A stretch of DNA of 33,892 bases from Chthoniobacterales bacterium (GTDB lineage: Bacteria > Verrucomicrobiota > Verrucomicrobiia > Chthoniobacterales > DASVRZ01). The notes beneath the pieces were generated by a model. The model saw only the letters and a list, made by a program, of their open reading frames with translations. It did not search any database and was not told where the DNA came from. Shown here in pieces: positions 5,408-33,892 of the stretch (the stretch's first letter is position 1; each line of letters opens with the position of its first letter). The DNA is taken from contig JBDSQB010000011.1 in assembly GCA_039930045.1 (NCBI GenBank), positions 1 through 33,892 on the forward strand. Direction: 5' to 3'. The position numbers were made by a program, and so were the translations under genes.

Positions 5408-8400
5408 GTGAAAAACCCAATCCAGTTTCTTTGCTCCCTAATCGGCGGGCTGCTCTTGTCGAATGCGGCGCTGGCGCACCCGCTCACCTTCAACTCCACG
5501 ATCACCTATTCCGCCGCCCAGCCCTCCGGCGCGGCCGATAGCGTCGCCCAGTGGAGCGGAGCCGCCTTCGACGCCGCGAACATCGGTGGCTCGGGCGTCA
5601 ACTCCGATGGCGGTGCGAACAACGGCACGGCCAACGACGCGAGCACCTACGTGGCCAATGGCCGGCCGGCGCAGGGCCAGACCTTCACGACCGGGAGCAA
5701 CCCCAACGGCTACGAGGTGAGCGGCCTCACCGTGCGCCTCGCGGGCTACACGAACAACACGGCGACCGGCGCCAACCAGATCGCTTGGGACCTCAGGCCG
5801 GCACCCTCGCCCATCATAGTGACCTTCGGCAAGGTAAACGGCACGACGCATTCGCTCCTATCGATCCAGAACTTCATCGCGGGAGGCGAGGGCACTCCCG
5901 GCTCGGGAACCAGCGCGAACGGGCCGGGCACCTACCTCACCTTCAACCTGCCCTTTCCGGTCCACCTCGATCCGAACACGACCTACAGTTTCGATCTTAC
6001 CACCCAAGGCAAAGGCTTCAACTACTTCGAGCTGCTAGGAACGAGCGCCGATCCCTACGCCGGCGGCACGGCTTACACGCGACCCTCGAAGGGGGCGACG
6101 ATCACGCCGCTGTCCGGAGACCGGGTGTTCCAGGTGAACATGACGGCATCGACGATGCCCTACGCGCCCTTTGCGCACCCGGGCACCTTGCACACGGAGA
6201 CCGACTTCGACCGCATGAAAGCCAAGATTGCCGCGGGCACCTCGCCGTGGAAAACCAGCTTCGACCAGTTTACGGGCAACCGCTTAGCGTCACTGGGTTG
6301 GGGGCCCACGGCATACGAATATATCATTCGCGGCGGGCCGGAGCAGAACAACTACACCCGCACCCAGTGGGACGGGAACGCGATCTACGAACTCTCCCTG
6401 CGCTGGAAGCTCACCGGCGACGTGGCCTATGCCAACCAAGCCGTGTGGATCGCGAACGCCTGGTCGGGCAAACTTCTGGGCATCACCGGCGACAGCAACC
6501 AAGCCCTCGCCTCCGGCATCTGCGGTTATCTCTTCGCCATTGGCGGCGAAATCCTCAGCACCTATCCCGGCTGGCCCGCGGCGCAAAAGCAGGCCTACAA
6601 GGATATGATGATGCGCGTGTTCTACATCGCGAACGTCGAGTATCTCTGGTATCACTTCGGCACGCCCGTTAACGCTGGCGGCAACACGCATTACCGGCTC
6701 AACTGGGACTCGGACAACATGGCATCGATGGCCGCCATCGGCATCCTGTGCGACAACCGCGCCGTTTACCAGCAGGCGGTGGACTACTTCAAATTCGGCG
6801 CGGGCAACGGACGAGTGGAGCGCGCGGCGTGGTATATCCACCCCGACGGCACGTCGCAAACCGAGGAGAGCGGGCGCGACCAGTTCCACAATCAGGGCGG
6901 CTGGTATTCGATGGGACTGCTTTGCCAGATGGCCTGGAACCAGGGCGACGACCTCTTCGGCTACGACAACAACCGGGTGCTGCGCGCCTACGAATACATC
7001 GCGAAATACAACCTCTACAACGATGACGTGTTCTGGGTTTATCACAGCAACACCGATAGCGCCACCAACGAGACGCTCTCGAGCAATGGCCGATGGGCGG
7101 GCAACTACCCCGCCTGGGAGCTGGTTTACAACCACTACGCAAACGTCCAAGGTGTCGCCGCGCCGTGGAGCAAGCTCGCGATGAACCGGATCCGGCCCGA
7201 GGGGTTCCCCACGATCTACAGCACTCCCTCCGCAGCGGATTCCCTCGGCCTCGGCAGTCTCACCTACGCCCGGGAGGACACGACCACCAGCGCCGCTCCC
7301 AGCGGCCTGCTCGCGCAATGGAGCAAGAACCAGCTCATCCTGAACTGGTGGGGCAGCGCCACCGCGACGAGCTACCAGATCCAGAGAACCGCCAGCGGCG
7401 CCAGCGCCGCCGGTCCCTACGCGACGCTCGGCACGGCCGTCGAACCCAACCTCAATTTCACCGACACCACCGTCGCCCAAGGCGGCAGCTACTACTACAA
7501 AGTCGTCGCCATCACTCCGACGGGCAACCTCGAGAGCACCCCGCTGCTCGCCAACCAGGCGCTCGTCGCCAGCTACAGCTTCGAAGGGAGCACCAACGAC
7601 GGCACCGGCACCCGCCACGCGACCGGCAAGGGAACCACCGCGCCTGGCTACGCCGCCGGCTTCGGCGGCGGACAGGCGATCTCCCTCAACGGCGTCGATC
7701 AATACGTCCAGTTCCCGGTCAACTCCGGCCTCTCCCGCGACGTCACCCTCTCAGCCTGGGTGTATTGGAACGGCGGCAACGCCAACCAGCGCGTCTTCGA
7801 TTTCGGCAGCGAGATCGAGAAATTCATGATGCTCACCCCCAAGGACGGTTATGGCAAAATCGCCTTCCAGATGACGACCTCCCGCGGCAACAACGGCTCG
7901 ATCTATCTCACCGGCCCCGCGATGCCGATAGCCACCTGGACACACCTCGCCGTCACCTTCAACGGCGAAACCGCGACCCTTTACGTCAACGGCTTGCCGG
8001 TCGCGGCCGGTTCCTCTCCCCGGCTCGCCCCGATGTTCAGCCAGCCCTTCTGCTACCTGGGCAAGAGCATGTGGAACGGCGACCCCTACTTCAGCGGTCG
8101 CATCGACAACTTCCGCATCTCCAATTACGCGCTGTCCGGTTCCGACGTCTATGCCCAATGGGGGCAGAGCGCTAACCACGCGCCCAAATTCACGGGCAAT
8201 CCGCTGTTCCGCGCCAACGCCACTCAGGGCACGGCTTACACGACCCAATCCATTTACACCAGCGCCACGGATGCCGACGGAGGAACGCTGATCTACGAGA
8301 AAGTCTCCGGCCCGTCCTGGTTGGGCGTGGCAGCGAACGGCGCGCTCTCCGGCACTCCCGCGAACAGCGACAACGGCAAAAACCTGCTCGTCGTGCGCGT

Positions 8401-11400
8401 GACCGACCCCGTCGGCGCCACCGACGACGCCAATCTCTACGTCACCGTTAACAACACCAACGAGGCGCCCACCTGGCTCTCCGGCACGGTCACCAAACCC
8501 GGTGTCACCCGCGGCCAGGCCTACGCCTCTTCGCTCGCGGCGAACGCGACGGACCCGGATCTTCCCTACGGCGACAGCCTTTCATTCAGCAAGGTCGGCG
8601 GCCCGGCCTGGCTCATGATCGGGATCAACGGCGATCTCACCGGCACGCCCGGCGCAGGCGACGCTGGCCTCAACAGTTTCACCGTCCGCGTCACCGATGC
8701 CGGCGGACTTTACGCGGACGCGACGCTGGAAATGAACGTGTTTCCATTCGCCCAGCGCTCGAGCTATCAGTTTGAGCAAAATCTCACAGACAGCGTCGGC
8801 AACTTCCCCGGCACGATCACCGGCACGCCCAACTATGTGTCCGGGCGGACCGGGCAGGCGCTCTCGCTCGATGGCGCGACTCATTACGTCACCCTGCCCG
8901 CCGGTGCGGCGAGCTACCACGAGATCTCGATTTCGACGTGGGTCTATTGGAACGGCGGTGGAAACTGGGAGCGCATCTTCGACTTCGGCAACAGCACGTC
9001 CAGCTTCCTGATGCTCACGCCCAACTCGGGCAGCGGCATGCGTTTCACCATCGCCCATGGCGGCCTCGAGCAACAGCTCAACACCACCGCCCTGCCGACC
9101 GGGCGCTGGATGCACGTCACCGTCACCTTGAGCGGCAGCACCGCCACGCTCTATGTGAACGGAGCCGCCGTCGCGACCAACAACGCGATCACACTCGCAC
9201 CCGATGCGTTTAACCCCGCTCTCAATTACATCGGCAAGAGCCAGTTCTCCGATCCGCTCTTTAACGGCCAGATCGACGACTTTCGCATTTACAATTACGC
9301 GCTGAGCGCGGCGGAGGTGGGCAGCATCGTTTCCAGCATTCCGCCCCCCACGCCTGGCAGCGTGACCGCGAGCGGCGGCAATGGCACCTCGCAGGTTTCC
9401 TTGGGCTGGGGTGTCGCGAGCGGTGCGACGAGCTACATCGTCAAGCGCTCCATCGCCACTGGCGGCTCCTACACCCCGATCTACACCGGCACCGCCACCA
9501 GCTATGCGGATACCAGTGCAAGCCCCGGAGTCACCTACTACTATGTCATCGTGGCGGTGAACGCCGCCGGCGAAAGCGTCGGCACCACCGAGTTGTCCGG
9601 AATGGCCAACATCGTGATGCCCAAGGTCCACCTGCGCTTCGACGAAACCACCGGCTCCACCGCCGCCGACGCGAGCGGCAACGGTTGGAACGGCACGCTC
9701 GTAGGCGGCTACACTTGGACGACCGGCAAGATCAACAACGCGGTCAGCCTGAGCGGCACTACGAATTACGCGACCCTGCCCTCCGGTGTGATCGCCGGAC
9801 TGGGTAACTACACCCTCTCGACTTGGGTGAAGCTCAACAGCATCTCCACGTGGGCGCGCATCTTCGATTTCGGAACCGGGACGACCAATTACATGTTCCT
9901 GACGCCGTCCAGCGGAGCAAGCAAGATGCGGTTCGCCATCCGGACCCCATCGGCGAGCGAACAACAGATCAATAGCGCCACCATCGTCAGCACCACCGGC
10001 GTGTGGACCCACGTGGCCGTCACGTTCTCCGGTTCCGTCGGCACTCTCTACATCAACGGCGTCTCCGCCGGCACCAACACAGGGATGACGCTCACTCCGT
10101 CGAGTCTCGGTCTCACCACCCAGAACTACCTTGGAAAATCCCAGTTCAGCACCGATCCCTATCTGAACGGCTCTTTGGACGAATTCCAGATCTATGGCCG
10201 CGCCTTGAGCGCCTCGGAAATTTCCGCGCTGGCCGCGCCTCTAGCCGCTCCTGGTGGACTTGCCGTGAGCATTGGAAATGCCCAGGCCGCCTTGACCTGG
10301 AACGCCGTTTCCGGCGCAACCGGTTACAACGTCAAGCGTGCGACCGTTAGCAGCGGCCCTTACACTGTGGTCGGAGCCAACCTTGCTGGCCCGAACTGGA
10401 CGGACACTGGAGTGATCAACGGCACTAGCTATTTCTATGTGGTGACCGCGCTCAATGGCCTGGCCGAAAGCGTGAACTCCACCGAAGTCAGCACGACTCC
10501 CGTCGGCCCTCCGCCGGTCCCTGCCAACTTCACGGCCGTCAGCGACAACGGCCTCGTCACCTTGACCTGGACCGCTTCCTCCGGAGCGACCAGCTATAAC
10601 ATCAAGCGCTCGACCACCGACGGCAGCGGTTACCTAACTATTGGCATTTCCACCTCGGCGACGTATGCCGACAGCATCGTCACCAATGGCACCGCGTATT
10701 ATTACGTGGTGACCGCAGTCGGCCCGAATGGCGAAAGCGCCGCCTCGGTCCAGGCCTCGGCCACCCCCCTTGCCCCGCCTGCGGCCCCGGCCGGACTCAC
10801 CGCAACCGCGAGCAATGCCACCGTGACCCTCGCTTGGAGCGCTGCCTCCGGAGCGACAAGCTATAACATCAAACGATCCGATACCAGCGGCAGCGGTTAC
10901 GAGCTCGTCGGCACAACCTCGGACACCGGCTATGTTGATACCGATGTCGTGAACGGGGCTCCGTATTACTACGTGATCTCGGCCCAAAACGCCGTCGGCG
11001 AAGGAGCCGATTCGACGCAAGCCACCGCGACTCCGGTGGACGTGCCCGCAGCCCCTTCCGGAGCGATCGCCTCTGCCGGCAACGGCCAAGCCGGGTTGGT
11101 CTGGCAGGCCGTGGGCGGCGCGACCAGCTACACGATCAAGCGCTCCACCGTTTCTGGCGGCCCCTACACCGTCCTCGCCAGCGGACTGACGACCACCAGC
11201 TACTTCGACAGCACGGTAGTCAACGGCACGACTTATTATTATGTGATCTCCGCGGTGAACGCCGGTGGCGAAGGTGACTCCAGCACTGAGTTGGTGGTGA
11301 CACCCAACAGCAATCCCCTGCGCGCCCATCTGCGCTTTGATCAAATCAGCGGGGCGACCGTCACCGATTCTAGCGGAAATGGATGGAACGGCACGCTTGT

Positions 11401-13999
11401 GGGCAGCTCCACCTACACGGTCGGCAAGATCAACAACGCGGTCAGCCTGAGCGGTTCCACCAATTACGCGACCCTGCCCACCGGAGTGATCGCAGGGCTG
11501 AATAACTTCACCATCTCCGCTTGGGTGAAGTTGAATAGTGCGGCACTCTGGCCACGGCTCTTCAATTTCGGCACGGGCACAACCAGTTTCATGTATCTGC
11601 TCCCTAGGAATGGATCGGGCAATGTGCAGTTCGGAATCACAACAAATGGATGGAACGGGCAGCAGCAAATCAACACCGCCTACACATTCCAAACTGGAAC
11701 ATGGACACATGTGGCAGTGACGTTGTCGGGAACCGTAGGAACGGTCTATGTGAACGGAACCTCGGTTGGAACCAACAGCACACTGACGCTAAATCCATCC
11801 AGCTTGGGAATCACAACGCAGAACTATATCGGAAAATCGTACCTTGGCAGCGATCCGTATCTCAATGGTCTGGTGGACGAGTTCCAAATCTACGGCCGTG
11901 CCTTGAGTTCCTCGGAAATCTCCGCCTTGGCAACAGCCTCGTTGAACGCGCCCGCGAACCTTGCCGCGTCCCCGGGCCAAACCCAGATCGCGCTGAACTG
12001 GAGCGCGGTCCCGGGAGCGACCGGCTACAACGTCAAACGCGGCTATGCCAGCGGAGGCCCCTTCACGACGATCCTCGGTCCGGTTACCGGCACCAGTTAC
12101 ACCGACACCAGCCTCGCCACTGGCAGCCCCTATTATTACGTGGTGAGCACGCTCAACGGAGTGGTGGAAAGCGCCAACTCCGCCGAAGCCAGCGCCACCA
12201 CGATGGCCCCGCCCCTTGCTCCGGCTGCTCTTACTGCGACCGGCGGGGACGCTCAAATAGCTCTCACCTGGGCCGCTTCTCCCGGAACCGCCAGCTATCA
12301 AGTCAAGCGTTCTCTGACCTCCGGAGGTTCGTATGCCATCGTTGCATCGGGTCTAACCGGAACGTCCTGCAACGACACCGGCCTGACCAATGGCACGCCG
12401 TATTTCTACGTGGTCTCTGCGGTCAATCCCGCTGGCGAGAGCCCGAACTCCGGTCAAGCCTCGGCGACTCCCCTGCCGCCCGTGCCCAACGCCCCGTCCG
12501 GCCTCACCGCCACGCCGGGCAACGGCCAGATTGCGCTCAGTTGGTCGGCCGCCAGCGGCGCGGCGAGCTACAACGTCAAGCGCTCCACCGTTTCCGGCGG
12601 CCCCTACACCGTCATCGCCAGCGGGCTGACGGCCACCAACTACGTTGACAACCCGGTGGTCAACGGGACGATCTATTTTTACGTCATCACCGCGGTCAAC
12701 CTCGGCGGCGAAAGCGGCGCCAGCACTCAGTTGGCGGTGACGCCCAACCCGCTGCGCGCCCATCTGCGCTTCGATGAAATCAGTGGGACGACCGCCACCG
12801 ATACCAGCGGAAACGGCTGGAACGGCACGCTCGTCGGCGGATCCACCTACACGGCAGGCAAGATCAACAACGCGGTCAGCCTGAGCGGTTCCACCAATTA
12901 TGTAACGCTGCCAACAGGGGTCATTGCTGGACTAACAAATTACACCATTTCGGCGTGGGTGAAATTGATCAGCACGTCGAACAACACGAGAATTTTTGAT
13001 TTTGGAACGAGTACCTCGAATTACTTGGAGCTGTGCCCGAAGAACGGAAACAACGGCTTTTTGCGCCTTGAAGCAGTCAAGGGAGGAGTGGTACAGCAGA
13101 TTAATACAACCTACACGTTCCCAACCGGGACGTGGACGCACGTGGCAGTGACCCTGTCGGGTTCCACCGGCACGCTCTATGTCAACGGAACAGCGGTCGG
13201 ATCCAATGCGGTGATGAGCCTCAATCCATCGAGTTTCGGTAACACCACCAAAAATTATATCGGAAAATCGCAATGGAGCAACGATCCCTATCTGAACGGC
13301 TCTCTGGACGAATTCCAAATCTACGGCCGCGCCTTGAGTGCCGCCGAGATCTCCGCCGTGGCAGCAGCCTCGCTGACTGCGCCCACGAATCTTGTCGTTA
13401 CCCCGGGCGAAACTCAGATCGCGCTGAACTGGAGCGCCGTGTCCGAAGCGGCCGGCTATAACGTCAAGCGCGCCGATGTGAGCGGCGGTCCCTACACGAT
13501 CCTCGGTCCGGTGACCAGCACGAGCTACATCGACACCAATCTCTCCTCCGGCAGCCCCTATTATTACGTGGTTACCGCCCTCAATGGGATGGTTGAAAGC
13601 GCAAACTCCGCCGAGGCGAACGGGACCACTTACACCTCCGTCCAGACGTGGCGGCTGACCAACTTCGGCACGGTCGCCAATGTCGACGCCGCCGCCGACA
13701 CGGCCGACCCTGATGGCGATGGCTGGACCAACGCCGAGGAATTCATCGCCGGCACCGATCCCACGAACGCAGCCAGCACGCTGAAAATCAGCCAACTCCA
13801 AATGAGCGGCAGCAACATCACCGTAAGTTTCTCCACCGTATCCGGAAAAACCTACCGCGTGGAACGCTCCGACACGCTGGAAAACGGTTCGTGGACAATC
13901 GTGCAGGGCAACATCGCCGGCACCGGCGGCACTGTTCAGGCCACGGATGTCGATGCGGCGGGCCAGGCCAAACGCTTCTACCGGATAGTCACCCCCTGA
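5408..13999 (+). CDS. Giant secreted modular protein: alginate-lyase-superfamily domain plus LamG, FN3 and Ig-like arrays
   Basis: 2863 residues from a GTG start whose product begins with a signal peptide cleaved near 'ALA-HPL'; the copy at 32479 uses ATG at the same place. Approximate domains: beta-sandwich 24-250; alginate-lyase-like (alpha/alpha) domain 255-620; FN3 625-715; LamG 718-915; two Ig-like (cadherin/He_PIG-type) 925-1115; LamG 1116-1312; FN3; LamG 1407-1605; four FN3 1608-1967; LamG 1970-2177; three FN3; LamG 2448-2656; FN3; a C-terminal module with 'DPDGDGWTNAEEF' and a beta tail to 2863. The lyase-like part has 'NWDSDNM' and E487-S-G-R-D-Q-F-H494, a signature shared with the two other lyase-like proteins here. 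Such proteins cleave uronate polymers by beta-elimination, but the actual substrate is unknown. The LamG/FN3 arrays suggest glycan binding and a long surface stalk. It lacks PEP-CTERM and SLH tails. LamG cores are AT-richer than their flanks. Confidence 0.92.
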   Translation: MKNPIQFLCSLIGGLLLSNAALAHPLTFNSTITYSAAQPSGAADSVAQWSGAAFDAANIGGSGVNSDGGANNGTANDASTYVANGRPAQGQTFTTGSNPNGYEVSGLTVRLAGYTNNTATGANQIAWDLRPAPSPIIVTFGKVNGTTHSLLSIQNFIAGGEGTPGSGTSANGPGTYLTFNLPFPVHLDPNTTYSFDLTTQGKGFNYFELLGTSADPYAGGTAYTRPSKGATITPLSGDRVFQVNMTASTMPYAPFAHPGTLHTETDFDRMKAKIAAGTSPWKTSFDQFTGNRLASLGWGPTAYEYIIRGGPEQNNYTRTQWDGNAIYELSLRWKLTGDVAYANQAVWIANAWSGKLLGITGDSNQALASGICGYLFAIGGEILSTYPGWPAAQKQAYKDMMMRVFYIANVEYLWYHFGTPVNAGGNTHYRLNWDSDNMASMAAIGILCDNRAVYQQAVDYFKFGAGNGRVERAAWYIHPDGTSQTEESGRDQFHNQGGWYSMGLLCQMAWNQGDDLFGYDNNRVLRAYEYIAKYNLYNDDVFWVYHSNTDSATNETLSSNGRWAGNYPAWELVYNHYANVQGVAAPWSKLAMNRIRPEGFPTIYSTPSAADSLGLGSLTYAREDTTTSAAPSGLLAQWSKNQLILNWWGSATATSYQIQRTASGASAAGPYATLGTAVEPNLNFTDTTVAQGGSYYYKVVAITPTGNLESTPLLANQALVASYSFEGSTNDGTGTRHATGKGTTAPGYAAGFGGGQAISLNGVDQYVQFPVNSGLSRDVTLSAWVYWNGGNANQRVFDFGSEIEKFMMLTPKDGYGKIAFQMTTSRGNNGSIYLTGPAMPIATWTHLAVTFNGETATLYVNGLPVAAGSSPRLAPMFSQPFCYLGKSMWNGDPYFSGRIDNFRISNYALSGSDVYAQWGQSANHAPKFTGNPLFRANATQGTAYTTQSIYTSATDADGGTLIYEKVSGPSWLGVAANGALSGTPANSDNGKNLLVVRVTDPVGATDDANLYVTVNNTNEAPTWLSGTVTKPGVTRGQAYASSLAANATDPDLPYGDSLSFSKVGGPAWLMIGINGDLTGTPGAGDAGLNSFTVRVTDAGGLYADATLEMNVFPFAQRSSYQFEQNLTDSVGNFPGTITGTPNYVSGRTGQALSLDGATHYVTLPAGAASYHEISISTWVYWNGGGNWERIFDFGNSTSSFLMLTPNSGSGMRFTIAHGGLEQQLNTTALPTGRWMHVTVTLSGSTATLYVNGAAVATNNAITLAPDAFNPALNYIGKSQFSDPLFNGQIDDFRIYNYALSAAEVGSIVSSIPPPTPGSVTASGGNGTSQVSLGWGVASGATSYIVKRSIATGGSYTPIYTGTATSYADTSASPGVTYYYVIVAVNAAGESVGTTELSGMANIVMPKVHLRFDETTGSTAADASGNGWNGTLVGGYTWTTGKINNAVSLSGTTNYATLPSGVIAGLGNYTLSTWVKLNSISTWARIFDFGTGTTNYMFLTPSSGASKMRFAIRTPSASEQQINSATIVSTTGVWTHVAVTFSGSVGTLYINGVSAGTNTGMTLTPSSLGLTTQNYLGKSQFSTDPYLNGSLDEFQIYGRALSASEISALAAPLAAPGGLAVSIGNAQAALTWNAVSGATGYNVKRATVSSGPYTVVGANLAGPNWTDTGVINGTSYFYVVTALNGLAESVNSTEVSTTPVGPPPVPANFTAVSDNGLVTLTWTASSGATSYNIKRSTTDGSGYLTIGISTSATYADSIVTNGTAYYYVVTAVGPNGESAASVQASATPLAPPAAPAGLTATASNATVTLAWSAASGATSYNIKRSDTSGSGYELVGTTSDTGYVDTDVVNGAPYYYVISAQNAVGEGADSTQATATPVDVPAAPSGAIASAGNGQAGLVWQAVGGATSYTIKRSTVSGGPYTVLASGLTTTSYFDSTVVNGTTYYYVISAVNAGGEGDSSTELVVTPNSNPLRAHLRFDQISGATVTDSSGNGWNGTLVGSSTYTVGKINNAVSLSGSTNYATLPTGVIAGLNNFTISAWVKLNSAALWPRLFNFGTGTTSFMYLLPRNGSGNVQFGITTNGWNGQQQINTAYTFQTGTWTHVAVTLSGTVGTVYVNGTSVGTNSTLTLNPSSLGITTQNYIGKSYLGSDPYLNGLVDEFQIYGRALSSSEISALATASLNAPANLAASPGQTQIALNWSAVPGATGYNVKRGYASGGPFTTILGPVTGTSYTDTSLATGSPYYYVVSTLNGVVESANSAEASATTMAPPLAPAALTATGGDAQIALTWAASPGTASYQVKRSLTSGGSYAIVASGLTGTSCNDTGLTNGTPYFYVVSAVNPAGESPNSGQASATPLPPVPNAPSGLTATPGNGQIALSWSAASGAASYNVKRSTVSGGPYTVIASGLTATNYVDNPVVNGTIYFYVITAVNLGGESGASTQLAVTPNPLRAHLRFDEISGTTATDTSGNGWNGTLVGGSTYTAGKINNAVSLSGSTNYVTLPTGVIAGLTNYTISAWVKLISTSNNTRIFDFGTSTSNYLELCPKNGNNGFLRLEAVKGGVVQQINTTYTFPTGTWTHVAVTLSGSTGTLYVNGTAVGSNAVMSLNPSSFGNTTKNYIGKSQWSNDPYLNGSLDEFQIYGRALSAAEISAVAAASLTAPTNLVVTPGETQIALNWSAVSEAAGYNVKRADVSGGPYTILGPVTSTSYIDTNLSSGSPYYYVVTALNGMVESANSAEANGTTYTSVQTWRLTNFGTVANVDAAADTADPDGDGWTNAEEFIAGTDPTNAASTLKISQLQMSGSNITVSFSTVSGKTYRVERSDTLENGSWTIVQGNIAGTGGTVQATDVDAAGQAKRFYRIVTP
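11042..12199 (+). repeat. Internal direct repeat, copy A (FN3-LamG-FN3 cassette)
   Basis: This part of the giant gene encodes FN3, LamG and FN3. It matches 12482-13629 in domain order, with long stretches of near-identical DNA at the FN3 edges (for example the segment encoding 'IKRSTVSGGPYTV') and at LamG borders ('AGKINNAVSLSGS'-like). The offset between copies is about 1.43 kb. The LamG centre is more divergent and AT-richer (line 11641-11700 counts 29 G+C of 60). Confidence 0.8.
12482..13629 (+). repeat. Internal direct repeat, copy B (FN3-LamG-FN3 cassette)
   Basis: Partner of 11042-12199. Borders are nearly identical while the LamG centre differs and is strikingly AT-rich (12961-13020 counts 24 G+C of 60). 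A related LamG at about 9628-10230 shares the same edges with a GC-rich centre, so at least three cassettes form one family. Confidence 0.8.
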
Positions 14000-26742: not shown

Positions 26743-29700
26743 ATGTATCGCACCATCCCCATTTCCTGTCTCGTGTTCTCGCTATTCGCCACGGCGGGCG
26801 CGGTGGCGGCGAAACCCGAACCGACCATCCTCACGAACAACGTCGTCGAGCTGCGCGAGACGCTCTCGCCGCAGGGCTTCGTGCACCCGGGCATCAGTTG
26901 CAACGCCGAGACGCTCGCGATCATGCGGGAGAAGGTGCTCCAGGGCGTTTCTCCGTGGGTCGATTACTTCGAGGGGATGCGCCGCACCCGTTTCGCGGAC
27001 CTGAAGGAGCGTCCGAAATTGGTCGGGCAGATCACGGACGACCCCGGCATCGGCGCGTTCGCCCACGACGCCCAGCTGGCCTGGGCGCAAACCATCCTCT
27101 ACGTCGTCACCGGCGACGAGGCCTATCGCAAGACGCCGCTGGAGATTGTCCGCTGGTATGGCTCTCGCACGGACGAAAGTTTCTTCCCGCAGTATTTCAC
27201 CGACAGCCACATCAAGATCGGAAAATACGTTTACACCCTGGCCAGCGCTGCGGACATCCTGCGCGCGACCACTCCGAAGAATGCCAAACTCGCCGTGACG
27301 CCGGCCATGATCGACGCGCTTCAGCAGAACTGCCTTCTCCCGATCCGGAAGAACTGCATCGAGCGCAACGATTACTTCATGAACCAGCATTCCTACGCTA
27401 TCATGGGGTTCCTCGCGTCCACGATCCTCGGCGATGAGGTCGAAGACTACAAGCGAGCCGTCGAATGGACGACCGTCAATGCCACATCCCCGAACCAGGG
27501 GCGCAATGGTTCGATCAAGCAACAGATTCGCCTGGTCACGCGCAATGACAAAACTGGCGAAGCCGTTCCGCCGAATCTTCAGCTTGTGGAAATGGGACGC
27601 GACATGGCCCACGCGGAGGGCAATCTCACCAATTTATTGATGATGTCGAAAACCATTGATTTTCAGAAAACGAAAGTTGATCCGGTGAGCGGCACGGTCA
27701 GCGACAAAGCGGATGGGGTTTCGCCGATCCATTTTCTGGACGACCGCCTGCCCAAAGGCGCGGCGCTGTTCGCAAAGTACAACCTGGGGTATGGCCTACC
27801 CTGGATACCCACCTATACCGAGACCGATCCAAAGCATCCAGATTATTTGGCCAGATTCGATCAGCCCAGTTGGCGTGGCGGGATCGGAGGCAGCGGATTT
27901 GTCGGTGGTTATTACTATTACAAAACGCTGGGTCTCGATATGGAGTCGGGGCCATTGCAGTATATCAAAGTCGCTTTTGACGCCACGGCTGCCAGTCGGG
28001 AGAGTGTGAGATCCGGCGGCTATTTAGATACTCTCCACAATTACGGCTTCGATTTCTGGATCGGGTTGCCCGCAGCCGCATCCGGCGCCGCACCCGACCC
28101 GGAGAAAGCTAAGCGCGCCCTGGCGACAGTGCTCCCACCATTGGAAATAACCTATAACGGCATTCCGGTGCAGGGCCAGCAGTTCGAGTATCACTTCGTG
28201 GATTTGTCGGCCCACGCCCAGCCTGGCGACATCTATCCGGGTTCGCCCATGGATATTCCCTTGAAGGTCGTGCGAGATGCCGATGGCACAGGCTATGTCC
28301 GGATGACGCTCGAAAAGGAGCCGCGCAGCATGGCGGTGTTTGCCAGTTTTCCGGCTGGATCCGGGTTGCGTGTGCGTTCCGATAACTTCGTGAAACTCGA
28401 CTTCTATGGGAATGAGGACTACGCGAAGCAATCTCCCAAGCAGACGATCTATCTTCCCAATACCCGCGGCGAATGGAAATACGTGACGATCAACCGCGGC
28501 GGTGGTGGTCGCTATATTCAAGCCACTCCGATGGACGGGGCTGCGTCTCTCGATTTTGATCGAATCGACACGGAGGCTGCTAAAGTCCTGCCGCTGAGTT
28601 TTGATGTGGCAGAGGACTCCAAATCGTTTCCAACGTATGCCGGTGCGAAGCTTGAAAAGGATTATACGGCAACCTATGCGGACAAGCGGTTGGCTGGAGA
28701 AACCAGTGTTGGAAGTGAGAAGGAAAAGATCGAATACGCGGCACGAAATCTTCCAGTGGGCGCGGCTCTGGACGGCACTTCGGGCAAATTCACATGGACG
28801 CCATCCGTCAATCAGGCCGGCGATCACACGCTCTACATTACCGCACAGACCCCCGTCTCCCTTAAAACCATACGCGTGGACATCCACGTTGCTAAGAACT
28901 TGCAGGCCGCATTGGATTACGTGGCCAGGGTCTATGATCCAAAGGAAAAATACGAGTCAGCAACAGTAAAAGCATTCAAAGCGGCTTTGCAAACCAAGGA
29001 CCTTGCCACAGTCAGGAAGGCCGCCGACCAGTTGGCGCTGTTGAATCCGAGGTTGGCGGACGGCAGCCTGGATTACCGCATGGCATCTGCCGGACCTGAA
29101 CGTGGACTCAGCAAGATGGCCGATAACGACCCCCTTAGCTGGGGCGGCCTCTGGGGCTTTGACAAGAACGTCACGATGGATTTCGGCAATCACTTCAAGG
29201 TCAAGTCCGAGGCGTTCCGCATCCAGTGCCGCGATGGTTTCCCCATTCGAGTGGCGGAGTCCGTGGTCTATGGATCGAATGACCGCAAACACTGGACGCT
29301 CTTAACCGAGAACAAGGCCAAAGCCTCCGCCGAGTTGCAGACCTTGACAGTCAAGGAGGAGGAGCGGGACAAGCCTTACAGGTATATCCGTCTGTTCATG
29401 CCGGCCAAACCGTTCCCCATTTTCGAGATCGCGGAGTTTCGCATCGTCGGCGAACGCATCGAGGACTACAGCCCCGATCAACGCGTGGCCTACATCTCGG
29501 GTTATGCCGACGGCACCTTCCGTCCGGACCAGAAACTGACCAAGGCCGAGGCGGTCTCGCTGCTGGCCGGTTTGGTGGACGACTACACCGACAAGGGTGT
29601 CTACGAATGCGCTTTCGTCGATGTGCTCCCCGCCGCGCCTTACTTCGACGATGTGGCCTATATGTCGAGCAAGAAGCTCGTCTCCGCGGACGGGGACAAG

Positions 29701-30078
29701 CGCTTCCACCCGGATGCGCTTATCACGCGCGGACAGTTGGCCGCCATCATGGCACGCATGCAGGCTCCAAAGAGAAAAGACGGCCCCGCCGCCTTGGAGG
29801 ATGTGCGCGCCGACACGCCCCATGCCACCGACGGCGCGTTCCGCCCGAACGCCCCGGTGACCCGCGCCGAGTTCGTGGTGGCCGTAAACCGGATGAGCGG
29901 GCGGGCTGCCACCGAGCAACCGCGCGAGGGCCTGCCGAAGTTCTCGGACGTAAGCGCTTCGCACTGGGCCTACGCCGACATCATGAGAGCCGCCACCACC
30001 TATCCGCTCCCGTCGGCTCCGGCCTCCACCGCGTCCCCGGCGATGCCCGCCGTATCGCGAATCCTGATGGCGGAGTGA
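26743..30078 (+). CDS. Secreted alginate-lyase-superfamily protein with F5/8-type C-like domain and C-terminal SLH repeats
   Basis: 1111 residues with a signal peptide (cleavage near 'VAA-KPE'). A lyase-like (alpha/alpha) domain spans about 55-450: 'FVHPGISCNAETLAIMREKV', 'NDYFMNQHSYAIMG' and E283-M-G-R-D-M-A-H290, equivalent to the ESGRD..H motif of the other lyase-like proteins here. A beta-rich region follows ('YVRMTLEKEP', 'WTPSVNQAGDHTLYITA' of Ig-like type), a short helical linker ('ALDYVARVYDPKEKYESA'), then a discoidin-like domain about 770-905 ('VYGSNDRKHWTLLTENK', 'YRYIRLFMPA'). SLH-like repeats run from 910 to 1090 ('GYADGTFRPDQKLTKAEAV', 'FVDVLPAAPYFDDVAYM', 'FRPNAPVTRAEFVVAVNRM', 'FSDVSASHWAYADIM'). 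SLH repeats anchor proteins to wall polymers, mainly in Firmicutes. The central DNA is AT-richer than its neighbours (28621-28680 counts 28 G+C of 60). Substrate unknown. Confidence 0.85.
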   Translation: MYRTIPISCLVFSLFATAGAVAAKPEPTILTNNVVELRETLSPQGFVHPGISCNAETLAIMREKVLQGVSPWVDYFEGMRRTRFADLKERPKLVGQITDDPGIGAFAHDAQLAWAQTILYVVTGDEAYRKTPLEIVRWYGSRTDESFFPQYFTDSHIKIGKYVYTLASAADILRATTPKNAKLAVTPAMIDALQQNCLLPIRKNCIERNDYFMNQHSYAIMGFLASTILGDEVEDYKRAVEWTTVNATSPNQGRNGSIKQQIRLVTRNDKTGEAVPPNLQLVEMGRDMAHAEGNLTNLLMMSKTIDFQKTKVDPVSGTVSDKADGVSPIHFLDDRLPKGAALFAKYNLGYGLPWIPTYTETDPKHPDYLARFDQPSWRGGIGGSGFVGGYYYYKTLGLDMESGPLQYIKVAFDATAASRESVRSGGYLDTLHNYGFDFWIGLPAAASGAAPDPEKAKRALATVLPPLEITYNGIPVQGQQFEYHFVDLSAHAQPGDIYPGSPMDIPLKVVRDADGTGYVRMTLEKEPRSMAVFASFPAGSGLRVRSDNFVKLDFYGNEDYAKQSPKQTIYLPNTRGEWKYVTINRGGGGRYIQATPMDGAASLDFDRIDTEAAKVLPLSFDVAEDSKSFPTYAGAKLEKDYTATYADKRLAGETSVGSEKEKIEYAARNLPVGAALDGTSGKFTWTPSVNQAGDHTLYITAQTPVSLKTIRVDIHVAKNLQAALDYVARVYDPKEKYESATVKAFKAALQTKDLATVRKAADQLALLNPRLADGSLDYRMASAGPERGLSKMADNDPLSWGGLWGFDKNVTMDFGNHFKVKSEAFRIQCRDGFPIRVAESVVYGSNDRKHWTLLTENKAKASAELQTLTVKEEERDKPYRYIRLFMPAKPFPIFEIAEFRIVGERIEDYSPDQRVAYISGYADGTFRPDQKLTKAEAVSLLAGLVDDYTDKGVYECAFVDVLPAAPYFDDVAYMSSKKLVSADGDKRFHPDALITRGQLAAIMARMQAPKRKDGPAALEDVRADTPHATDGAFRPNAPVTRAEFVVAVNRMSGRAATEQPREGLPKFSDVSASHWAYADIMRAATTYPLPSAPASTASPAMPAVSRILMAE

Positions 30079-30100: not shown

Positions 30101-32143
30101 ATGATCCATCGTTTGCCCCTCATCGGCTGTTTCCTCCTCGCTCTGTTCATCGGCCAGGCCGTCCCGGCTTGTGCCAAAGAGTTCATTCATCCCGGTGGAC
30201 TGCACTCCCAAGCCGATCTCGACCGCATGAAAGCCAAGGTGTCCGCGGGCGAGAGCCCGTGGATCGACGGGTGGAACGCGCTCATTCGGGACTCCAAAGC
30301 GCAGAGCGATTACCGCGCCGCCCCGCACCCTCACATGATGGACCGAGGGCGGGCACAACGGGACGCCAGCGCCGCCTACCTCAATGCCCTGCGCTGGATC
30401 ATCTCCGGCGACAAGGCGCATGCCGACTGCGCCGTGCGCATCCTCAACGCTTGGTCCGAAACGATGAATGAGGTTTCCCATGGCAATGATCAGCCGGGCC
30501 TAGGCGGCATCCCCATCGGCACCTTCGCCGTCGCGGCGGAGTTGATGCGTTCCTACCCAGGCTGGCCCGCCACCGAACAAGTCCGCTTCAAGCGCATGCT
30601 CGTGGATTTCATGTATCCCGTTTGCCACGACTTCCTCACCCGGCACAACGGTCGCGGCGACTCGGCCTTTTGGGCGAATTGGGACACCTGCAACATGCGC
30701 GCGGTCATGGCCATCGGCGTCTTCTGCGACGACCGCGCGAAATTCGACGAAGCCGTCGAGTATTTCAAAAACGGTCGCGGCATGGGCTCGATCCGCAACG
30801 CCGCACCCTTCCGCTTCGAAGACGGCCTCGTCCAATGGCAGGAAAGCGGCCGCGACTACGCCCACGTCATGGGCGGTCAGGGGCTGCTCTTTGAGTTGTG
30901 CCAGATCGCCTGGAACCAAGGCCTCGACCTCTTCGGCTACGACGACAACCGCCTGCTCGGCGCCGCCGAACACGCCGCGCAATACACTCTCTGGAAGGGC
31001 GTGCCTTATCGCTATTACACCAACAGCGATAGCGCCAACCAGTTCTACATCTCGGAGAACTACCACGGCCGCCTCGACGCCTCGCACTTTGAGTTAGTCT
31101 ATAATCACTACGTCGTGCGGAAGGGGCTGAAGGCTCCGCACGTCCAGCTCTTCGCCGCACTCCGCCGCCCCGAACCCGGCGAGATCGACGTCATGGGCTA
31201 CGGCACGCTCACCTTCACCCTCGATGCCGCCGCGTCCCCGCTGCAGACCGAGGCGCCGCCGACACCACGCGAGGTGATCGCGAGCTCGGGCCTGCAACGC
31301 GTCGAGCTGAAATGGTCGCCCTCCGGCGCCTACAATGCGCACGGCTACGAGGTCAGCCGCGCCACCGCGCCGGGCGGCCCTTTCACCTCCATCTACTCGA
31401 CCACTCGGTGGACCACGCCCCTCTACACCGATACCGACCTCGAGCCCGGCCGCAGCTATTACTACACCGTCTCCGCGCTCAACAACGCCGGCAAAAGCGC
31501 CCCCTCCGCGCCCGTGAACGCCATCCCCGCCAAGGGAGAGCCGTTGCCCGCGCTCAGTCAGCGCATCTCCGTTAAGGGCGCGCTCTATTCCAAAGCTGCG
31601 GGCAACTCGTTCCTGGTCCCCGCCACGGGCCGCGAGTTGGACGGGAGCTTCGCCGGTCAACCCGTGGACGGCGATTTCTGTATCACCGCGCGATTGGCGG
31701 ACTGGAATGGATCCGTTGGCATGATGGGGCTGACGGTTCGGGAACCGGGTGCGAAGAAGCCGCGTGCTCTAGCGGTGACCTTGGGCGAAATCGGTGGACG
31801 CCTCGCGCGCTTTCGCACGCGGGTCGATGGCAAAACCACGGTCCAGCGCGGCTGCGACTATACCTGGCTGCCCGTCTGGTTCCGCATTCGGCGCGTGGGC
31901 GACGCGTTCACCGCCTACCAATCTTCCGATGGCATCGAGTGGTTTGAGATCGGCAAGAGCACCGTCGCGCTGCCCCGCACCGCGTTGGTCGGCCTGCTCG
32001 CGAGCGGCGGCGCAACTCCGCCCGGACGAAAAGCGACCGATTCCCCCCAAGGCGTCATCGACCACGTCGCGATCGAGCGGAGCCGGCGGCCCCGCCACCC
32101 GCGCCCGGCGCGCTCGCCACGACCGTGCTCGATGACGGCGTGA
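30101..32143 (+). CDS. Secreted alginate-lyase-superfamily protein with FN3 and DUF1349-like domain, frameshifted near 3' end
   Basis: 680 residues as read, with a signal peptide (cleavage near 'ACA-KEF'). The lyase-like domain covers about 28-375 and is clearly related to the catalytic part of the giant protein: 'HPGGLHSQADLDRMKAKVSA', 'NWDTCNMRAVMAIGVFCDD' and E248-S-G-R-D-Y-A-H255. It lacks the giant protein's N-terminal beta-sandwich. FN3 follows at about 388-475, then a beta-sandwich at about 480-660 resembling DUF1349 or LamG ('DGDFCITARLADW', 'YQSSDGIEWFEIG'). The last residues after 'GVIDHVAIE' become arginine- and proline-rich and end abruptly, while another frame just downstream continues with a good FN3 domain to 32382. 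A single missing base near 32072-32100 would explain this. The lyase-like part and the FN3 are intact, so a truncated active protein is possible. Confidence 0.85.
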   Translation: MIHRLPLIGCFLLALFIGQAVPACAKEFIHPGGLHSQADLDRMKAKVSAGESPWIDGWNALIRDSKAQSDYRAAPHPHMMDRGRAQRDASAAYLNALRWIISGDKAHADCAVRILNAWSETMNEVSHGNDQPGLGGIPIGTFAVAAELMRSYPGWPATEQVRFKRMLVDFMYPVCHDFLTRHNGRGDSAFWANWDTCNMRAVMAIGVFCDDRAKFDEAVEYFKNGRGMGSIRNAAPFRFEDGLVQWQESGRDYAHVMGGQGLLFELCQIAWNQGLDLFGYDDNRLLGAAEHAAQYTLWKGVPYRYYTNSDSANQFYISENYHGRLDASHFELVYNHYVVRKGLKAPHVQLFAALRRPEPGEIDVMGYGTLTFTLDAAASPLQTEAPPTPREVIASSGLQRVELKWSPSGAYNAHGYEVSRATAPGGPFTSIYSTTRWTTPLYTDTDLEPGRSYYYTVSALNNAGKSAPSAPVNAIPAKGEPLPALSQRISVKGALYSKAAGNSFLVPATGRELDGSFAGQPVDGDFCITARLADWNGSVGMMGLTVREPGAKKPRALAVTLGEIGGRLARFRTRVDGKTTVQRGCDYTWLPVWFRIRRVGDAFTAYQSSDGIEWFEIGKSTVALPRTALVGLLASGGATPPGRKATDSPQGVIDHVAIERSRRPRHPRPARSPRPCSMTA

Positions 32144-32382: not shown

Positions 32383-32417
32383 GCCGCTCGTTCCATGTGA
32401 TTGGGATCGAGCGGGGG

Positions 32418-32447
32418 GCCTCTCCGCCCGGAGGCTACACTTAGCCT
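32418..32447 (+). terminator. Two overlapping, mutually exclusive hairpins before the second giant-gene copy
   Basis: Stem 1 pairs GCCTC (32418-32422) with GAGGC (32431-32435) around an 8-base loop. Stem 2 pairs AGGCTA (32432-32437) with TAGCCT (32442-32447) around CACT. They share bases 32432-32435, so only one can form at a time, a layout like an attenuator. No T-tract follows. This is in the 96-base gap before the start at 32479. Short stems occur by chance in GC-rich DNA. Confidence 0.25.
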
Positions 32448-32478
32448 ACGCCAAGGTTTCAACCGCCCTAGACCATTT

Positions 32479-33892
32479 ATGAAAAACACAATTTGGATTC
32501 TTTGCTCCGTAGTTTGGGGGCTGCTCTTGTCGGATGCGGCGCTGGCGCACCCGATCACCTTCAACTCCACGATGACCTATTCCGCCGCCCAGCCCTCCGG
32601 CGCGGCCGATAGCGTCGCCCAGTGGAGCGGAGCCGCCTTCGACGCCGCGAACATCGGTGGCTCGGGCGTGAACGCCGACGGCGGCGCGAACAACGGCACG
32701 GCCAACGACGCGAGCACACGGGTGACCAACCAGACGACCCAGGGGCAGACTTTCACGACCGGGAGCAACGCCAATGGCTACGAGGTGAGCGGCATCACCG
32801 TGCGCCTCGTGGGCTACACGAACAACACGGCGACCGGTGCCAACCAACCTTCCTGGAACCTCGGGGCCGTGAACTGGCCGACCACGGTGACCGTCGGCAA
32901 AGTGAACGGCACGACGCATTCGCTCCTGTCGATCCAAAACTTCATGCCGGGAGGCGAGGGCAATCCCGGCGTCGGCAGCAGCGCGAACGGGCCCGGCACC
33001 TACCTCACCTTCAACCTGCCGTTTCCGGTCCACCTTAATCCCAACACGACCTACTGCTTCGACGTGGCCACTGGCAGCTCCTTCGAGTGGCTCGGCACGA
33101 GCAGCGATCCTTACGCTGGCGGCACGGCCTACACTCGCAGCGGATCAACGATCACGCCGTTGTCCGGAGACCGGGTGTTCCAGGTGAACATGACGGCATC
33201 GGCGGCACCCTACGCGCCGTTCACGCACCCCGGTGCCTTGCACACGCAGTCCGACTTTGACCGCATGAAGGCCAAGATCGCCGCAGGCACCGCGCCGTGG
33301 AAAACCAGCTACGACCAGTTTGTTGGAAGCCGATTCGCGTCAACGGGTTGGGGGCCCACTCCATACGAATATATCAACCGAGGCGGGACGGCGCAGAACA
33401 ACTACACCCGCACCCAGTGGGACGGGCAGGCGATCTACGAGCTCTCCCTGCGCTGGAAGCTCACCGGCGACGTGGCCTATGCAAACCAAGCCGTGGTGAT
33501 CGCCAACGCGTGGTCGGGAAAACTTTTGGGCATCACCGGCGACAGCAACTTCGCACTTGCGTCCGGCATCTGCGGCTATCTCTTCGCCACGGGCGGCGAA
33601 ATCCTGAGCACCTACCCCGGCTGGCCCGCGGCGCAAAAGCAGGCCTACAAGGACATGATGATGCGGGTGTTCTACCCCTTGAACCAAGAATTTCTTTGGC
33701 GGCACAACGGCACTCCCACCAACGCTGGCGGCAACACGCATTACCGGCTGAACTGGGACACGGACAACATGGCCTCGATGGCCGCCATCGGCATTCTTTG
33801 CGACAACCGCGCCGTTTACCAGCAGGCGGTGGACTACTTCAAATTCGGCTCGGGCAACGGCCGCGTGGAGCGCGCGGCGTGGTATATCCACC
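32479..33892 (+). CDS. Second copy of the giant lyase-like gene, 5' part (continues beyond window)
   Basis: ATG at 32479 opens a frame that stays open for 471 codons to the last base. The product has a signal peptide cleaved near 'ALA-HPI', the same N-terminal beta-sandwich as the protein at 5408-13999 ('AAQPSGAADSVAQWSGAAFD'), then the start of the alginate-lyase-like domain ('HPGALHTQSDFDRMKAKIAA', 'NWDTDNMASMAAIG'). Alignment with 5408-6842 is end to end with a net loss of seven codons; DNA stretches of 90 bases or more are identical in the signal-peptide-proximal part. The ESGRD..H motif lies just beyond the window edge. Whether the LamG/FN3 arrays are repeated cannot be seen. This looks like a recent duplication or gene conversion. 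Confidence 0.9.
   Translation, partial: MKNTIWILCSVVWGLLLSDAALAHPITFNSTMTYSAAQPSGAADSVAQWSGAAFDAANIGGSGVNADGGANNGTANDASTRVTNQTTQGQTFTTGSNANGYEVSGITVRLVGYTNNTATGANQPSWNLGAVNWPTTVTVGKVNGTTHSLLSIQNFMPGGEGNPGVGSSANGPGTYLTFNLPFPVHLNPNTTYCFDVATGSSFEWLGTSSDPYAGGTAYTRSGSTITPLSGDRVFQVNMTASAAPYAPFTHPGALHTQSDFDRMKAKIAAGTAPWKTSYDQFVGSRFASTGWGPTPYEYINRGGTAQNNYTRTQWDGQAIYELSLRWKLTGDVAYANQAVVIANAWSGKLLGITGDSNFALASGICGYLFATGGEILSTYPGWPAAQKQAYKDMMMRVFYPLNQEFLWRHNGTPTNAGGNTHYRLNWDTDNMASMAAIGILCDNRAVYQQAVDYFKFGSGNGRVERAAWYIH

What the first reader, a model, noticed from the sequence alone, without database searches (positions are those of the whole stretch)
9628..13375. LamG cassettes with conserved edges and divergent, AT-rich cores
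Three LamG units (about 9628-10230, 11317-11940, 12749-13375) share near-identical DNA at both borders, while the centres differ in composition: 35 of 60 G+C at 9781-9840, 29 of 60 at 11641-11700 and 24 of 60 at 12961-13020. This looks like swapping or diversification of ligand-binding cores by recombination between flanking repeats.
Basis: seen in the sequence. Interest (0 to 1): 0.72.

Follow-up and report, generated by a model that had tools for sequence, protein, structure and literature searches.

The report
Mosaic repeated sugar-binding domains
In a giant, probably secreted, sugar-degrading enzyme of a bacterium, two neighbouring copies of a probable sugar-binding domain share fairly recent DNA on both sides but carry much older, very different centres, which looks like patchwork left by recombination inside the gene; the process is a known one and no active swapping system was found.

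Summary
The three LamG units are real parts of one 2863-aa protein (5408-13999: alginate-lyase-like domain, five LamG, many fn3). Their edges are similar, not near-identical (70-92% DNA, one shared 32-bp exact run). The edge/core contrast is nevertheless real and strongest for units 4 and 5: where both encode the same residue they use the same codon 75-81% of the time outside 11465-11824/12899-13255 and 31% inside (0 of 3000 permutations); dS is 0.27 (N), saturated (core), 0.56 (C). Silent sites argue against selection on the protein alone. The segment is not hypervariable in the LamG family at large: W4/W5 show the largest core drop of 1176 homologue pairs. Both cores have low GC3 (0.62-0.64; other seven units 0.84-0.90). 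The shared DNA runs on into the flanking fn3 modules, so LamG borders are not special. Unit 3 is weaker: its core is that of a paralogue on another contig. No donor, silent cassette or DGR was found; tree tests cannot reject W4+W5 sisterhood in the core; no population data exist. Best reading: an old intragenic recombination mosaic. Ongoing core swapping is untested.

The parts
5408..13999 (+). gene A: 2863-aa multidomain protein; alginate-lyase-like domain, 5 LamG, several fn3, He_PIG, TSP3-like C-terminus
   Evidence: ORF, translation, Pfam
9620..10234 (+). LamG unit 3 (W3)
   Evidence: Pfam PF13385, unit alignment
11318..11932 (+). LamG unit 4 (W4)
12752..13363 (+). LamG unit 5 (W5)
11105..11464 (+). 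upstream shared tract of cassette 4 (3' part of fn3 plus LamG codons 1-49); partner 12545-12898
   Evidence: nt 0.76-0.92 in sliding windows; dS 0.27 over the LamG part
11465..11824 (+). diverged tract of W4 (LamG codons 50-169)
   Evidence: same-codon agreement 0.31 inside vs 0.75-0.81 outside, 0/3000 permutations; dS saturated
12899..13255 (+). diverged tract of W5, partner of 11465-11824
11534..11656 (+). most diverged protein segment of W4 (codons 73-113); aa identity W4/W5 0.29-0.31
   Evidence: scan; largest core drop of 1176 homologue pairs
12968..13093 (+). most diverged protein segment of W5
11825..12201 (+). downstream shared tract of cassette 4 (LamG codons 170-205 plus next fn3); partner 13256-13629
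   Evidence: nt 0.69-0.85; dS 0.56 over the LamG part; D7 82%
9689..9800 (+). short N-edge tract that W3 shares with W4 (and in part W5)
   Evidence: nt 0.83-0.90, dS 0.36 W3/W4; permutation 52/2000 only
9725..9756 (+). about 32-bp run identical in all three units (also 11423-11454 and 12857-12888), in the shared N-edge; its first 20 bases occur nowhere else in the assembly
   Evidence: exact matches, genome pattern search
9812..10171 (+). W3 core, closest to LamG 3 of the paralogue on contig C15 (L009:3771-4130): aa 0.82 inside vs 0.52 outside
   Evidence: scan, 12/2000

Best explanation
Gene A encodes a probably secreted polysaccharide-degrading enzyme whose C-terminal half is an array of probable carbohydrate-binding LamG domains spaced by fn3 modules. 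Units 4 and 5 are neighbouring fn3-LamG-fn3 cassettes. Homologous recombination inside the gene (gene conversion or unequal crossing-over between cassettes) has given them common, fairly recent DNA across the fn3 modules and LamG edges, while the central ~360 bp has a much older or separate history. SHOWN: the difference in silent-site divergence and its two boundaries in W4/W5; the low GC3 of both centres; the extension into fn3. INFERRED: that recombination made it (the most ordinary process that changes silent-site age abruptly); that the exchange is old rather than ongoing; that the centre carries ligand-contacting strands. NOT RESOLVED: whether edges were homogenised around old cores, or low-G+C cores were inserted between existing edges.
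For: W4/W5 same-codon agreement 0.31 inside 11465-11824 and 0.75-0.81 outside, 0/3000 permutations. dS 0.27 / saturated / 0.56. Protein identity 0.83-0.96 across the upstream boundary where codon agreement falls to 4/19. Family background inverted: codons 73-113 are as conserved as the rest across 49 homologues (0.43 vs 0.41), yet W4/W5 have 0.31 vs 0.79, rank 1 of 1176 pairs; codons 21-49, weakly conserved in the family (0.33), are 0.93 in W4/W5, also rank 1 for excess. Low GC3 in both centres, not in the other seven units. W4's core scores higher against LamG of other families (60-62 bits) than against W5 (49.5), though the whole domains are 70% identical. W3's core is closest to paralogue L3; W3+W4 is rejected in core codons 66-128 (AU 0.017). 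Control: of 16 tandem LamG pairs in other genomes the one look-alike lost significance once flanks were included.
Against: No significant topological conflict: ((W4,W5),W3,(L3,L4)) is not rejected in any segment (AU 0.776, 0.184, 0.613); W4+W5 has 82% support in core codons 57-128 and is not rejected in the core with more taxa (AU 0.38-0.75). Tract limits and the 73-113 segment were chosen from the data they are tested on, and homologue pairs are not independent. Unit 3 gives only marginal silent-site evidence. No donor found. GC3 dips also occur in other genes of the window.
Confidence: 0.78

Rival explanations
1. Core replacement: the central ~360 bp of units 4 and 5 were replaced by lower-G+C LamG cores through recombination in the flanking homologous edges, changing sugar specificity.
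For: Both centres, and no other unit's, have GC3 0.62-0.64. Both are less like outside homologues at codons 73-113 than over the rest of the unit (W5 0.38 vs 0.45, W4 0.36 vs 0.43; W3 0.47 vs 0.43). W4's core scores higher against LamG of other families than against W5. The diverged segment contains the stretch that aligns with AbnA Domain4 residues 751-758.
Against: No donor above 56% in 384 genomes of the class and none in the assembly. W4+W5 sisterhood in the core not rejected. The tract's outer parts (codons 50-72, 114-150) are still 0.73-0.87 identical in protein, far above outside homologues.
Confidence: 0.36
2. Edge homogenisation (the other sub-form): units 4 and 5 are an old tandem duplication with ordinary old cores; gene conversion keeps the fn3 modules and LamG edges alike, as in concerted evolution of tandem domains.
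For: W4+W5 group in edges and core. Shared DNA runs through the fn3 modules, not only LamG edges. The edges exceed family background by more than the core falls below it.
Against: Does not explain the low GC3 of both cores or W4/W5 identity of 0.31 at codons 73-113, below the 0.47 seen between LamG units of other genomes.
Confidence: 0.4
3. Selection without recombination: vertical tandem duplication, with diversifying or relaxed selection on the central, perhaps ligand-facing, strands.
For: Protein divergence peaks in a 41-codon segment inside the wider diverged tract, so some extra protein-level change there is likely on top of the tract.
Against: Silent sites change with it: 4/19 identical codons where the protein is 83% identical; dS saturated vs 0.27.
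Confidence: 0.12
4. An active diversification system (DGR, invertible or silent cassettes, site-specific recombinase).
For: Superficial likeness only: conserved edges, variable core.
Against: No reverse transcriptase family match in the genome; no copy of the junction sequence outside the three units; differences at all codon positions; the annotated neighbours are glycoside hydrolases and surface proteins. The assembly is broken at two paralogues, so a silent copy cannot be excluded.
Confidence: 0.04

Closest known systems
Periscope proteins and other tandem-domain bacterial surface proteins (PMC8201768)
   Same: Tandem folded domains in a bacterial surface/secreted protein, with DNA similarity between repeats that permits intragenic recombination
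   Different: There the repeats are nearly identical (82-100% protein identity between neighbours in Sgo_0707) and repeat number varies; here the LamG units are 70% identical with a sharply older centre, and no length variation could be examined
[quoted passage not shown]
   Same: What it might work like: specificity regions exchanged by recombination between homologous copies
   Different: There switching by recombination between copies is described; here no switching and no silent copies were found, and the protein is a polysaccharide enzyme
Domain4 of AbnA, GH43 arabinanase of Geobacillus stearothermophilus (PDB 5hon, 5ho2; PMC9110388)
   Same: Nearest solved fold (TM 0.84-0.86, 27% identity); a carbohydrate-binding domain attached to an extracellular polysaccharide enzyme
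   Different: The aligned Trp residues of AbnA are mostly absent in W3-W5; the ligand of W4/W5 is unknown
S-layer domain-containing protein, residues 221-444, Clostridium thermocellum (PDB 4qvs)
   Same: Closest solved sequence (E 3e-38; 36% identity)
   Different: No ligand or recombination history in the sources read

Membership tests
LamG / concanavalin A-like lectin domain (PF13385) | Profile match above the curated cut-off | tested here: met
   W3 123.8, W4 119.2, W5 130.6 bits, cut-off 27.6
LamG / concanavalin A-like lectin domain (PF13385) | Beta-sandwich (concanavalin A-like) fold | tested here: met
   AlphaFold2 model of W4, pLDDT 89.8, nearly all beta; top matches AbnA Domain4, TM 0.84-0.86
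Carbohydrate-binding module | Measured carbohydrate binding | not testable with these tools
   Only fold likeness to AbnA Domain4, which binds arabinopentaose (PMC9110388)
Intragenic gene-conversion / recombination mosaic | Abrupt change of silent-site divergence along a pair of repeats | tested here: met
   W4/W5 only, 0/3000 permutations
Intragenic gene-conversion / recombination mosaic | Significantly different trees for different segments | tested here: inconclusive
   One topology is accepted in all segments; W3+W4 is rejected in the core (AU 0.017) and only borderline in the N-edge (AU 0.057)
Cassette-swapping specificity system (hsdS-like) | Alternative donor copies in the genome | tested here: not met
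   No junction copy outside the three units and no further close LamG unit besides the C15 paralogue; the assembly is broken at paralogues B and C
Cassette-swapping specificity system (hsdS-like) | Variation within a population | not testable with these tools
   Single genome held for its GTDB family; no reads
Diversity-generating retroelement target | Reverse transcriptase in the genome | tested here: not met
   No PF00078 match; control genomes ring

The most novel reading that the evidence does not exclude
Carbohydrate-binding LamG arrays in this lineage evolve specificity by exchanging the central beta-sandwich segment between cassettes through recombination in conserved fn3/LamG-edge homology, an hsdS-like logic for polysaccharide recognition, with cores drawn from lower-G+C relatives.
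Probability: 0.2. Interest if true: 0.62.

Novelty: new member of a known kind. Interest (0 to 1): 0.36.

Why it matters
If cores are exchanged between conserved edges, multi-LamG enzymes would be modular libraries of sugar-binding specificities, and W4/W5 a natural pair for testing which segment sets specificity. If only the edges are homogenised, it is a clear example of concerted evolution that stops at a possibly functional core. Either way the inverted conservation profile gives exact boundaries to test.

Tried and rejected
Near-identical borders: not so. Family-wide hypervariable core as the whole explanation: rejected, codons 73-113 are as conserved as the rest in 49 homologues. Selection only: disfavoured by silent sites. 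Topology conflict as proof of mosaicism: five-unit AU tests inconclusive; a larger tree run timed out and a reduced one had little power. The L031 pair looked like a second case but was not significant when flanks were added; L047 shows the opposite, a shared centre. DGR: no reverse transcriptase. Silent cassettes: none in the assembly. Close orthologues: none in the family or order, best lyase match outside the genome 49%. Paper searches for LamG or carbohydrate-binding modules with gene conversion or domain shuffling found nothing directly relevant.

Full report
WHAT IS THERE. The three LamG units lie in one open frame, 5408-13999 (2863 aa), with a signal-like N-terminus, an alginate-lyase-like domain (PF05426), five LamG domains (PF13385), fn3 and He_PIG modules and a TSP3-like C-terminal region. 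Neighbours include GH43 genes, two alpha-L-fucosidases, GH31, GH97, an arabinofuranosidase, an SLH protein and a second alginate-lyase-like gene: a polysaccharide-degradation locus. The window is numbered from base 1 of contig C11 of a 3.52-Mb genome in 23 contigs.

CHECK OF THE OBSERVATION. The borders are similar, not near-identical: 70-76% against unit 3 over 242-289 nt, up to 0.92 between units 4 and 5. The edge/core contrast is real in all three pairs at nucleotide level (0-1 of 300 permutations).

SILENT SITES. The critical test is whether silent sites follow the same pattern, since protein constraint alone could give conserved edges. For W4/W5 they do: same-codon agreement at identical degenerate residues is 0.31 within 11465-11824/12899-13255 and 0.81 outside in the unit (0/2000), or 0.75 outside over the whole cassette (0/3000). 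NG86 dS is 0.27 upstream, not computable (saturated) in the centre, 0.56 downstream. In the windows from 11429 and 11465 the protein is still 96% and 83% identical while codon agreement falls to 13/23 and 4/19. For W3/W4 the effect is marginal (52/2000) and for W3/W5 not significant (399/2000). The shared DNA is not bounded by the LamG domain: it starts in the upstream fn3 near 11105 and continues into the next fn3.

COMPARISON WITH THE FAMILY. In 49 LamG units codons 73-113 are as conserved as the rest (0.43 vs 0.41) and codons 21-49 are the weaker part (0.33). W4/W5 invert this: 0.31 in 73-113 and 0.93 in 21-49, the most extreme of 1176 pairs on both counts; the three W pairs rank 1, 2 and 4 for the core drop. 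Segment limits were chosen from these same units and pairs are not independent, so the rank is descriptive. Over codons 50-169 W4 and W5 have GC3 0.64 and 0.62; the seven other units of this gene and its paralogue have 0.84-0.90. The dip is significant within gene A (0/500) and absent in the paralogue (p 0.49), but other genes of the window also have dips.

PARALOGUES. A second copy of the gene lies at the start of contig C15 (77% DNA identity over 4.3 kb) and the start of a third at the window's end. Unit 3's core matches LamG 3 of the C15 copy (protein 0.82 in 9812-10171 vs 0.52 outside, 12/2000), whereas its N-edge is nearer to units 4 and 5. Formal tree tests are weak: ((W4,W5),W3,(L3,L4)) is accepted for every segment. 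With more taxa, W4+W3 is rejected in the core (AU 0.017), W4 with an outside unit is rejected in the N-edge in three of four cases, and W4+W5 is not rejected anywhere.

DONORS. Whole W4 and W5 are 70% identical, but W4's centre scores higher against LamG domains of other families (62.5, 62.3, 61.7, 60.2 bits) than against W5 (49.5), and W5's centre scores higher against one of them (53.1) than against W4 (47.4). No outside match exceeds 56%, so no donor is identified.

STRUCTURE. The W4 model (pLDDT 89.8) is nearest in fold to Domain4 of the arabinanase AbnA (TM 0.84-0.86), a carbohydrate-binding domain that holds arabinopentaose in a concave cleft rich in aromatic residues (PMC9110388). In the sequence alignment AbnA 751-758, which includes Trp758 at the face toward the catalytic domain in the closed form, falls on about W4 residues 105-113, inside the most diverged segment. 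That this segment sets specificity is inference; exact ligand contacts were not available.

CONCLUSION. Recombination inside the gene best explains the sharp change in silent-site divergence. Direction is unresolved: edge homogenisation fits the tree results, core replacement fits the composition and the below-background core. The two are sub-forms of one explanation (0.40 and 0.36 of the total). Nothing points to an active system: no reverse transcriptase in the genome, no silent cassette in the assembly, and the annotated neighbours are enzymes and surface proteins. The kind of process is known from tandem-domain surface proteins (PMC8201768) and, with actual switching, from hsdS genes (PMC7394358, abstract). 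Moderate interest.

Noticed in passing
window 32401-33892 and L009:1-7124 (contig C15 start): Two further copies of the lyase-LamG gene, both cut by contig ends inside the lyase region; the lyase parts of the three copies are 87-90% identical in DNA with patchy exact runs up to 95 bp (5504/32575) and 81 bp (6935/L009:885).
   Followed up: partly
window 30101-32143: A fourth, distant alginate-lyase-like gene (38% identity) with an fn3 domain lies directly upstream of copy B.
   Followed up: no
L009:4325-5870: The C15 paralogue has four LamG units and a stretch without LamG before its last one, where gene A has cassettes 4 and 5; the C-terminal arrays of the copies differ in make-up.
   Followed up: no
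window 26743-30078: The SLH-domain gene has a low-GC3 stretch (66-codon minimum 0.48), lower than the LamG cores.
   Followed up: no
window 12212-12409: The fn3 module between the two cassettes also has low GC3 (0.59), so composition is patchy along gene A.
   Followed up: no
L047:808-933 and 1687-1824: A tandem LamG pair in another genome of the class shows the opposite mosaic: a shared centre (codon agreement 0.95) between diverged edges (0.41), 4/3000 permutations.
   Followed up: partly
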